Assembly: GCA_003228875.1 (NCBI GenBank)
Contig: QIGK01000128.1
Span: forward strand, 1 to 43,431
Reading direction: 5' to 3'
Source of the DNA: Rhodobacterales bacterium
Lineage (GTDB): Bacteria > Pseudomonadota > Alphaproteobacteria > Rhodobacterales > Rhodobacteraceae
DNA: 43,431 nt
Shown here: positions 37,315 through 42,687 of the stretch, piece by piece
How the letters are laid out: every line of letters starts with the position of its first letter
Numbering within the stretch: the first letter of the stretch is position 1
Notes under the pieces: model-generated
The model's database searches: none
What the model saw: the letters and a program-made list of their open reading frames with translations, nothing else
What the model was told of the DNA's origin: nothing
Made by a program: the position numbers and the translations under genes

Positions 37315-37558
37315 GTGCGCCAGCAAGAGCAAAACCGCGCTCATCAAGGCTGGCAGGAAATGTGAGCCGAGGCAATCAGCATAGTGAAGCCGTCTTTCGC
37401 TGCACCGCTATCGAACTGGTGCTGTGCGGGCGGAGTGAGCTTTCGTTGCATAAACAGTCTCTTTGTCGGCTCCCAGCCCAAAACGGACGTCATGCATTTC
37501 TAACCAAGCAAAATTGGTGGCGCGGCGTGCCTGCAATGCGACTCGTGCGCGTCGCACT
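37315..37558. other. Gene-free spacer after the mdh terminator
   Basis: About 240 nt with no gene. It is GC-rich and contains a GAAGCCGTCTTTCGCTGC run similar in style to other Rhodobacterales spacers. No hairpin or repeat of strength was seen beyond the terminator. Confidence 0.4.
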
Positions 37559-38038
37559 TTATCGCTTATTTTTTTGGGGCGGAGTAGCCCAATGCATGAT
37601 ATTCACGCAGTCTACGTCATATATTGAAAGACGATTGTACAACTCCCAGTCCTGCGTGAAGACTCTAACCTTCTCTTTTTTCAGGCGAGCCAAACATGAG
37701 ATAATTGCCGCATCCGCAAGACCTACCCTCATGTATTCGCTAATTTTAACAACCTCTTTGCTAGGCTGATATATCTCGTCAAGGTTGAGGATGTAGACGC
37801 TCAATGCGTGGGCAGAGCCAACAACCGGCTGCTGTTGACCTGCTCCTAAATGATTGGAAGCTTCAGTTAGAATGTTTGGCAATGAAATGTGACTGTTGAG
37901 TTTTTTGATCTCATCATCCAGTTTCTGGAACATCTTTAAGGTATGCTGTTTGGTCTTGCCTGTCCCAATAAGATCGGGCCGCAAGGAACCACATAAAAAT
38001 AAGACCAGTGGTCCGCTATCCAACAATACAGAGGTCAA
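37559..38038 (-). CDS. PIN-domain protein (putative RNase)
   Basis: A 159 aa protein with the acidic pattern of PIN nucleases: Asp7 in VLLDSGPLVLF, Glu59 in LTEASN, Asp109-region in GLADAAIIS, and Asp in VFTQDWELYNRL. PIN toxins cut RNA using these carboxylates. The start is TTG at 38038, two codons after the UGA of the upstream gene and in the same frame, so either coupled restart or stop read-through makes it. The upstream gene is a candidate antitoxin. No signal peptide or membrane segment. Confidence 0.75.
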   Translation of the reverse strand: MTSVLLDSGPLVLFLCGSLRPDLIGTGKTKQHTLKMFQKLDDEIKKLNSHISLPNILTEASNHLGAGQQQPVVGSAHALSVYILNLDEIYQPSKEVVKISEYMRVGLADAAIISCLARLKKEKVRVFTQDWELYNRLSIYDVDCVNIMHWATPPQKNKR

Positions 38039-38041
38039 GGT

Positions 38042-38344
38042 TCAACCTATCCTCTGGAAGATGCCTTCGTTGTCCAAATAGATATGTCGCACCTCTCGAA
38101 CCGTCTTGGTGGTTTTTTTACCAAATCCAGAAAGGGAAGCCATGGCCCCAAGATTAGCTGGTTCTGAAGTTTCTTGACGTTTTCCATTGAAACCAATGGA
38201 AACAATCCATCCATCGCCTTCGGGCTCTAGCCCTTCTAACAGGACGCCGTCTAACCGATTGTCGCGATCAACAAATGTTTCAAAGTAACTGAATGCCTTT
38301 TCGACAATCTCCTCAACACTCAGTTTCTGCTGTTCTTCCGGCAT
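38042..38344 (-). CDS. Unknown protein encoded in frame with the PIN protein (candidate antitoxin)
   Basis: A 100 aa protein starting MPEEQQKLSVEEIVEKAFSYFETFVDRDNRLDGVLLEGLE, with DGWIVSIGF and a C-terminal VREVRHIYLDNEGIF. It has no known antitoxin DNA-binding motif (no ribbon-helix-helix, AbrB or HTH recognised). ATG 38344 has AGAGGA upstream. Its stop UGA is followed by ACC and then the TTG of the PIN gene in the same frame. Pairing suggests a toxin-antitoxin or similar two-gene unit, but the partner is not a recognised antitoxin family. Confidence 0.7.
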   Translation of the reverse strand: MPEEQQKLSVEEIVEKAFSYFETFVDRDNRLDGVLLEGLEPEGDGWIVSIGFNGKRQETSEPANLGAMASLSGFGKKTTKTVREVRHIYLDNEGIFQRIG

Positions 38345-38836
38345 AATCAAAATCCTCTAGCTAAATACATTGGCCCACATCATTAATCTGACACAGCAGT
38401 GAGCCAGCCCACTTAGCCACAAGATCGCCCCAATCTATGGATTGATCAAGGACATTCTTCCTTGCCACGGCTTCGCAACTTTGAACATTCATTTCCTGCG
38501 CTTTGTTGTAATCCGTTCATCATGCAGCATTCCGCACTAAGGGCTCTAAGTGCAAATCCGCTGCGATTTCAAACAACGGCCGCTTTTGGAAATCATCCTT
38601 AAATTTCTTAAAACATGGCTTGACCGACAACGGATACTCGACGGAAGCGTTCCGCGCAAAAAGGCTGCCCTCTGTCAGCGACACCCTTGCTGGCGCAATG
38701 GGCCGCTAACATTCGGGCGGTGGCCTCGCTATGCTCGGCGGACGTTACGTCACCCGCTGGAATTTTGGTCAAACGCTTGTATTATTTCTGGCATGACCTA
38801 TTTCTTGAACATCGTTCATAAATTTGGAGCCAGATC
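38345..38836. other. Gene-free spacer upstream of the exported protein gene
   Basis: About 490 nt with no convincing gene. It contains copy 3 of the CCGAGC-N2-AGCGAGGCCA repeat in reverse (38721-38738) and GC-rich text resembling decayed spacer. The translation that runs through 38550-38840 has no family features and overlaps the next gene start, so it is not called. Confidence 0.4.
38721..38738 (-). repeat. Short interspersed repeat, copy 3
   Basis: On the minus strand CCGAGCATAGCGAGGCCA, matching copies 1 and 2 except at the two variable positions. Confidence 0.6.
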
Positions 38837-42072: not shown

Positions 42073-42396
42073 TCAAGCAGCCTCCCCCAAATCCGTCCGC
42101 TCCAGCGGTTCGATCTCGTCCAGCGCAGCAAGGCGTTTTTTGTCGGCGTGCAGGCAATCCAGTTCATAGCTGCTTTGCAACCCAAGCCAAAACCCATCGG
42201 ACATGCCAAAATATCGTGCCAACCGCGCAGCCGTGTCTATGCTCAGCGCGGTTTCCTCACGCAGCAACCGCTCTATTCGGGTGCGCGGCACTTTCAGAGC
42301 CTTGGCCAGCTTTCCAGCACTCAGGCCCAGCGGCTCCAAAAACTCTTCCCGCAGTATTTCACCGGGGTGGATAGGGTTTGCAAATCTGATTTCCAT
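42073..42396 (-). CDS. higA: HigA-family antitoxin
   Basis: A 107 aa protein with the HigA signature NPIHPGEILREEFLEPLGLS, then a helix-turn-helix (LSAGKLAKALKVPRTRIERLLREE) and FWLGLQSSYEL. HigA binds HigB and represses the operon. It follows higB by 9 nt, the reversed toxin-first order typical of higBA. GAGGAGG precedes the ATG. It lies between sucC and sucD on the opposite strand. Confidence 0.93.
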   Translation of the reverse strand: MEIRFANPIHPGEILREEFLEPLGLSAGKLAKALKVPRTRIERLLREETALSIDTAARLARYFGMSDGFWLGLQSSYELDCLHADKKRLAALDEIEPLERTDLGEAA

Positions 42397-42405
42397 AAAA
42401 CCTCC

Positions 42406-42687
42406 TCAGTGGTAATCCACTATTTCAACATCTTCCGCTGCGTTATCAACCCAGCGAAAACAAATCCGCCATTGCCGGTTGATCCGAATGGAATGCCAGC
42501 CATCGCGATCACCGCGCAGGGCCTCCAGCCTATTCGACGGCGGGTGACGCAAATCTTGCAGAGCGCGCGCCTGTTGCAACATTTTCAAACGGCGCTGCGC
42601 CGCCCGCATCAAATCCGGCGGGAACCGTTTTGGCAACCTGCCATCCAGAATCTGCTGAACGCGCTTGTCGCGAATCGACCTAATCAT
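42406..42687 (-). CDS. higB: HigB/RelE-family toxin
   Basis: A 93 aa basic protein with [49 protein letters not shown] and VDYH at the end, the HigB-like RelE fold of ribosome-dependent mRNA interferases. It is first in higBA; a 7-nt-arm palindrome lies just upstream. The module is divergent from sucD. Confidence 0.92.

What the first reader, a model, noticed from the sequence alone, without database searches (positions are those of the whole stretch)
37559..38344. PIN protein encoded in the same frame as its partner, separated by UGA-ACC-UUG
The partner stops with UGA at 38042-38044, and the PIN gene starts with TTG two codons later in the same frame. Either termination-reinitiation couples them, or UGA read-through makes a fused partner-PIN protein. 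The partner does not look like known VapB-type antitoxins, so it may be a new antitoxin type for PIN toxins.
Basis: partly seen in the sequence, partly recalled or inferred. Interest (0 to 1): 0.55.

Follow-up and report, generated by a model that had tools for sequence, protein, structure and literature searches.

The report
PIN nuclease with unnamed small partner
Two small neighbouring genes, one for a PIN-type nuclease and one for a small protein of no named family, travel together across many bacteria and look like a mobile toxin-antitoxin pair; the odd stop codon between them in this genome is an ordinary gene junction, not a fusion.

Summary
In detail: on the minus strand a 100-aa gene ends in UGA at 38044-38042, and a 159-aa PIN gene starts at UUG 38038 in the same frame after one codon (ACC). 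The pair is real. A prophage contig (L100) carries it at 77% DNA identity with the same UGA-ACC-UUG, dN/dS 0.13-0.14 in both genes, and no flanking similarity.

The in-frame junction is not special. In 93 pairs the PIN start lies in another frame in 86, usually as a 4-base overlap; no fused ORF was seen, and 4 of 7 in-frame junctions use UAA. Coupled termination-reinitiation is favoured; read-through is not.

The association is near-obligate: 93 of 94 PIN places have the partner directly upstream, the exception being a fragment. The pair is patchy and mobile (prophage, cyanobacterial plasmids, DUF499-DUF1156 defence operons, an empty site in congeners). PIN catalytic acids are kept. The partner matches no Pfam or NCBIfam family and models as an alpha-beta4, cystatin/PepSY/NTF2-like domain, unlike DNA-binding VapB-type antitoxins.

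Best reading: a PIN-based, type II-like toxin-antitoxin pair with an unnamed, non-DNA-binding antitoxin candidate. Toxicity and neutralisation are untested.

The parts
38042..38344 (-). Partner gene (candidate antitoxin), ATG to TGA, 100 aa; alpha-beta4 domain; no Pfam or NCBIfam family
   Evidence: family homology; model; fold matches
38353..38358 (-). AGAGGA, Shine-Dalgarno-like, 8 nt before the partner ATG
   Evidence: Read from the sequence; consensus match only
38036..38044 (-). Junction UGA-ACC-UUG: partner stop, one-codon spacer, PIN start, same frame
   Evidence: identical in L100
38046..38055 (-). AGAGGAUAGG inside the end of the partner gene, a possible ribosome-binding site for the PIN start (AGAGGA 11 nt, AGG 7 nt before UUG)
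   Evidence: Read from the sequence; weaker in L100 (AGAAGAUGG). A local hairpin over it is not better than synonymous recodings and not conserved
37559..38038 (-). PIN-domain protein, TTG start, 159 aa; catalytic acids D7, E59, D109, D130
   Evidence: fold of relative L061 matches VapC/FitB/PIN structures
37345..38780 (.). Approximate acquired stretch holding the pair, between the mdh terminator and the next gene; pair G+C 0.449 against 0.515 in the rest of the window
   Evidence: bounds approximate

Best explanation
The pair is a small mobile toxin-antitoxin-like module. One mRNA carries the partner first and the PIN nuclease second. Ribosomes ending the partner at UGA restart on the UUG three bases on, so the PIN protein is made only where its partner has just been made. 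The partner, a folded alpha-beta4 (cystatin/PepSY/NTF2-like) domain, binds the PIN protein and keeps its four-acid active site inactive; loss of the partner or a trigger such as phage infection would free an RNase that stops growth. Shown: gene structure, near-obligate pairing, conserved active site, purifying selection, mobility, absence from Pfam and NCBIfam. Predicted: both folds. Inferred: reinitiation, binding, inhibition, RNase activity, toxicity, trigger.
For: Partner directly upstream of 93 of 94 PIN places in 92 loci, exception a 38-column fragment, and 93 of 93 partner places paired. In 50 whole genomes 57 partner places and 56 full-length PIN places, all 56 adjacent to a partner; the 57th partner has a PIN remnant. 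Antitoxin-first order with overlap: 62 of 93 have a 4-base overlap. D7, E59 and D109 in 76 of 76, D130 in 75 of 76. Partner and PIN distances correlate over 75 pairs (Mantel r 0.80, largest of 999 permutations 0.23; shared ancestry not removed). Self-contained cassette: DNA similarity to L100 starts at the partner ATG and ends near the PIN stop, and L100's neighbours are phage terminase, HNH, antiterminator and replication genes. Empty site in 4 of 6 congeneric loci. Plasmid copies and copies within DUF499-DUF1156 operons.
Against: No toxicity, binding or RNase data exist for this pair. The partner gene is broken or truncated in four loci whose PIN frame is intact (L039, L066, L085 in two pieces; L041 cut before the last strand), which a strong toxin should not allow; all four are metagenome assemblies, so assembly error is possible. 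The PIN gene is broken in L018 (an isolate) and L088. The partner has no recognisable DNA-binding domain, so the usual autoregulation is unsupported. The complex was not modelled with an interface score.
Confidence: 0.65

Rival explanations
1. The two proteins form a regulated, non-toxic RNase: the partner is a subunit or substrate adaptor that helps the PIN protein rather than restraining it.
For: Near-obligate pairing and correlated divergence would look the same; the partner has no DNA-binding fold; broken partner genes with an intact PIN frame occur.
Against: Patchy, mobile distribution on plasmids and a prophage, with 0 of 40 relatives carrying the partner, is typical of addiction or defence modules; antitoxin-first overlapping order is the TA habit (recalled).
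Confidence: 0.2
2. The pair is an accessory effector of anti-phage systems: the partner senses infection and the PIN protein kills or arrests the cell, rather than acting as a stand-alone addiction module.
For: Nested between DUF499 and DUF1156 genes in three cyanobacterial plasmids; prophage copy L100 and four further viral contigs; a survey of BREX-related systems names PIN RNases among backup effectors (PMC12839542, passages).
Against: The window pair lies between housekeeping genes with no defence genes beside it; no control for chance neighbourhood was run.
Confidence: 0.1
3. UGA read-through makes a fused partner-PIN protein of biological importance.
For: Same frame in the window; the same UGA-ACC-UUG in L100 at dS about 1.1.
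Against: No fused ORF, 86 of 93 out of frame, UAA in 4 of 7 in-frame cases; no unusual structure after the UGA (z -0.61 and -0.02).
Confidence: 0.03

Closest known systems
VapBC / FitAB type II toxin-antitoxin systems
   Same: PIN-fold second gene with the acidic active site; small upstream partner gene, overlapping or abutting; mobile and patchy. The L061 PIN model matches FitB and VapC chains at Z about 10.
   Different: PIN sequence matches Pfam PIN only weakly, in 4 of 76 members; partner has no AbrB, RHH, HTH, Phd or MerR match and models as alpha-beta4.
PIN-associated antitoxin families of Makarova 2009 (COG2442/DUF433, COG2886, COG2880, COG1753, MerR-like; PMC2701414 section 9 read)
   Different: All those described there are DNA-binding folds (winged HTH, HTH, AbrB, RHH, MerR); this one is not predicted to be.
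NetFlax PIN pairs with diverse antitoxins (PMC10440598, passages)
   Same: PIN/VapC-like toxins validated with non-classical antitoxins.
   Different: Whether any of them (for example SynP1, node D151) is this partner family could not be checked; its sequences are in files I could not open.
DUF499-DUF1156 (BREX-related, Hma-like) defence operons
   Same: Host the pair between their genes in some cyanobacterial plasmids.
   Different: The window's copy and many others are not inside such operons; the pair is separable.
Cystatin/PepSY/NTF2-like folds (YpeB, YpmB, TraM, colicin M immunity protein, designed cystatins)
   Same: Partner fold by model: window Z 7.3 at best, L061 Z 10.0 (4exr), 9.9 (4r80), 8.7 (2gu3).
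   Different: No sequence family match (2 of 78 members hit PepSY weakly); a shared fold shows no function.

Membership tests
Type II TA of the VapBC (PIN) kind | PIN-fold toxin with conserved acidic active site | tested here: met
   D7, E59, D109 76 of 76, D130 75 of 76; fold of relative L061. The window PIN itself was not modelled.
Type II TA of the VapBC (PIN) kind | Antitoxin gene adjacent, same strand, upstream or overlapping | tested here: met
   93 of 94 PIN places; 56 of 56 full-length PIN places in 50 genomes
Type II TA of the VapBC (PIN) kind | VapB-type antitoxin with a DNA-binding domain (AbrB, RHH, HTH, Phd) | tested here: not met
   No such Pfam hit in 78 partner sequences at E 0.01; none in NCBIfam; alpha-beta4 model
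Type II TA in general | Toxicity of one gene alone and neutralisation by the other through protein binding | not testable with these tools
   Needs expression and binding assays
Known PIN-partner families in Pfam or NCBIfam | Profile match of the partner above cut-off | tested here: not met
Cystatin/PepSY/NTF2-like superfold | Helix packed on a four-stranded antiparallel sheet | tested here: inconclusive
   Window Z 7.3 at best (below the caution line of 8); relative L061 Z 10.0 and 9.9; Foldseek E at best 0.1
Stop-codon read-through fusion | Conserved reading frame and leaky stop across relatives, or natural fusions | tested here: not met
   7 of 93 in frame, 4 of these with UAA; no fused ORF
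DUF499-DUF1156 defence operon component | Located between these genes | tested here: not met
   True for plasmid copies, not for the window

The most novel reading that the evidence does not exclude
The partner is a new class of PIN inhibitor: a folded, non-DNA-binding cystatin-like domain that caps the nuclease and is itself the infection sensor, giving a widespread two-gene abortive-infection switch that is carried by plasmids and prophages and slotted into larger DUF499-DUF1156 defence operons.
Probability: 0.2. Interest if true: 0.72.

Novelty: new variant of a known kind. Interest (0 to 1): 0.5.

Why it matters
PIN toxins are among the commonest bacterial toxins (recalled), and the PIN-associated antitoxin families in the survey read here are DNA-binding proteins. 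A near-obligate, widespread partner without such a domain would show another way to hold a PIN nuclease in check, and would name two protein families now labelled hypothetical or only PIN-domain in cyanobacteria, proteobacteria, acidobacteria, planctomycetes, Bacteroidetes and others. Its place inside anti-phage operons and a prophage makes a role in phage conflict directly testable.

Tried and rejected
Single-sequence search with the window partner found no true relative: none in 40 relatives, two chance matches in 385 class genomes (L002, inside a solute-binding-like protein; L003, no plausible gene), none on plasmids or viral contigs. The family was reached only through the PIN protein. Of five matches, one was the window itself and one (L010) was a chance match without a PIN gene; L002, L003 and L010 were dropped before counting.

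A special RNA structure at the junction: the window has a hairpin over the possible ribosome-binding site (z -2.16), but it is absent in L100 and no better than synonymous recodings (24.6% of 2000 fold as well). Rejected.

Complex prediction: a naturally in-frame pair (L061, stop read as a residue) was folded as one chain as a stand-in; pLDDT 88, pTM 0.73, but no interface score is returned, so no interface is claimed. Earlier mixed alignments (and trials) misplaced partner rows and were not used.

Neighbourhood scan used 112 of 145 neighbour proteins and has no control, so no enrichment for defence genes is claimed. No match to the pair was found in the named phage collection.

Literature: searches gave no paper on this pair; joint searches for PIN domain, antitoxin and PepSY, cystatin or NTF2-like returned 0 papers. 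The library lacks most subscription papers, and the PIN superfamily classification was not held. In the Synechocystis TA paper (PMC4963859, passages) some PIN genes have hypothetical partners that I did not compare.

Full report
Observation. The pair lies on the minus strand. The partner runs from ATG 38344 to TGA 38044-38042 (100 aa; a TTG at 38350 is possible but ATG has an AGAGGA eight bases upstream). One codon, ACC, follows, then TTG 38038-38036 opens a 159-aa PIN gene ending at 37559, in the same frame.

Is it real? Neither protein has a Pfam match at cut-off, and NCBIfam gives only a sub-threshold match for the PIN protein. The PIN protein finds two cyanobacterial plasmid genes annotated as PIN-domain and three true alphaproteobacterial relatives among 385 class genomes (a fourth match, L010, was chance). 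Each of these five has, directly upstream, a roughly 90-105-aa gene with the pattern LEEVE...W.ITLGF...K....G.V.SMK.R. The window partner belongs to this family: 25.5 bits against a profile built without it, versus 8.1 for the best of 2000 shuffles, aligned over residues 8-64.

Family survey. A scan of 84,980 species genomes with the six-sequence PIN alignment gave 131 relatives; 79 loci were kept, from cyanobacteria, proteobacteria, acidobacteria, planctomycetes, Bacteroidetes, Chloroflexi and others. With viral and plasmid loci added, and duplicates, three chance loci and the congener loci without the pair dropped, 92 loci hold 94 PIN places; 93 have the partner immediately upstream on the same strand, and the exception is a 38-column fragment in L032. 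All 93 partner places are paired. In 50 whole genomes searched separately with each profile there are 57 partner places and 56 full-length PIN places, every one of the 56 beside a partner; the 57th partner (G810) has only a PIN remnant (a few weak or fragmentary PIN matches are not counted). These genomes were chosen through the PIN gene, so the test of solo PINs is fair but the test of solo partners is weaker.

Junctions. Of 93 pairs, 75 have the PIN start in frame +2 (62 with a 4-base overlap, 8 with a 1-base overlap), 11 in frame +1, and 7 in the partner's own frame. The seven are the window, L100, L007, L061, L070, L082 and L083; their stops are UGA in three and UAA in four. No ORF holds both domains. 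L047 and L070 are near-identical operons with different spacing and frame. The family therefore keeps proximity, not frame: the signature of translational coupling, not of read-through. No unusual RNA structure follows the UGA, and a hairpin over the window's possible ribosome-binding site is neither conserved nor beyond synonymous chance.

A close relative. A scan of viral contigs with the PIN family found L100, a 14.6-kb record carrying the window's pair at 77% DNA identity over 764 bases, 74% (partner) and 76% (PIN) protein identity. The match starts at the partner ATG and ends close to the PIN stop. Neighbours are terminase large and small subunits and an HNH endonuclease on one side and a transcription antiterminator and replication-initiation protein on the other, all on the opposite strand. 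The pair's G+C is 0.47 against 0.685 around it; in the window 0.449 against 0.515. dN/dS is 0.142 (partner) and 0.130 (PIN) with dS about 1.1, and the nine junction bases are identical. A further search for this subfamily in viral contigs and 385 class genomes found only these two.

Acquisition. None of 40 relatives, 12 of them congeners, has the partner. Six of nine congeners searched have the downstream gene; in four of the six it follows mdh after 73-178 bases, in two another ORF sits there (it reads like a glycosyltransferase, not searched), and in the window the gap is 1580 bases. The pair was inserted beyond the conserved mdh terminator.

Structure. PIN residues D7, E59 and D109 are invariant in 76 sequences and D130 is present in 75. 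The PIN half of L061 matches PIN proteins: 2fe1 Z 10.5, FitB 10.3, VapC 5x3t 10.2. The window partner models as one helix and four strands (pLDDT 83, pTM 0.69); best fold matches are YpeB Z 7.3, TraM 7.0 and colicin M immunity protein 6.1, below the level at which the tool advises trust. The more central L061 partner half reaches 10.0 (4exr), 9.9 (designed cystatin 4r80) and 8.7 (YpmB). This supports a cystatin/PepSY/NTF2-like arrangement and gives no sign of the DNA-binding folds of VapB-type antitoxins.

Context elsewhere. In three cyanobacterial plasmids the pair lies between a DUF499 gene with a small gene after it and a DUF1156 methylase gene; five of 112 neighbour proteins are DUF7680. 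DUF499 and DUF1156 belong to BREX-related systems in a 2026 survey that lists PIN RNases among backup effectors (PMC12839542, passages only). Many other copies have mixed neighbours.

Mechanism. Antitoxin-first order, coupling, near-obligate pairing, an intact nuclease site, mobility and purifying selection fit a type II-like toxin-antitoxin pair. In the survey of PIN antitoxins that I read (PMC2701414, section 9 and passages) a small protein in a conserved operon with a known toxin gene is taken as an antitoxin; the families listed there are DNA-binding. What speaks against: partner genes are broken or truncated beside intact PIN frames in four metagenome-assembled loci, and no activity has been shown. 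I put 0.65 on the toxin-antitoxin reading, 0.2 on a non-toxic two-part nuclease, 0.1 on a dedicated defence effector and 0.03 on read-through.

Novelty. Both families are absent from Pfam and NCBIfam (only weak, scattered matches), and eight paper searches found nothing on the pair, within an incomplete library. One published set of PIN antitoxins (NetFlax, PMC10440598) could contain it under another name and could not be checked. I therefore call it a new variant of a known kind, of moderate interest, with the stop-codon oddity itself ordinary.

Noticed in passing
window 42073-42687, minus strand: A HigB-like toxin gene (Pfam HigB-like_toxin, E 4.7e-19) followed by an HTH_3 gene, a second and classical toxin-antitoxin pair about 4 kb from the first.
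   Followed up: partly
L105, L106, L107 (Nostoc and Allocoleopsis plasmids): The partner-PIN pair sits between DUF499 plus a small gene and a DUF1156 methylase; in L105 and L106 the gap also holds ThiF-family, HTH and ImmA/IrrE genes.
   Followed up: partly
L100 2500-3276: A prophage-type contig carries the window's pair as a bare two-gene cassette in opposite orientation to the phage genes.
   Followed up: yes
L045 (genome G790, contig C290): Two diverged copies of the pair lie about 3.4 kb apart on one contig.
   Followed up: no
L039, L066, L085, L041; L018, L088; G810:C37: Broken members: partner frameshifted or cut short beside an intact PIN frame (four metagenome assemblies), PIN broken beside an intact partner (L018, L088), and a partner with only a PIN remnant (G810).
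   Followed up: partly
L097 and L098, between mdh and the next gene: Two congeners have a different insert at the same spot, a glycosyltransferase-like ORF; the site may be an insertion hotspot.
   Followed up: no
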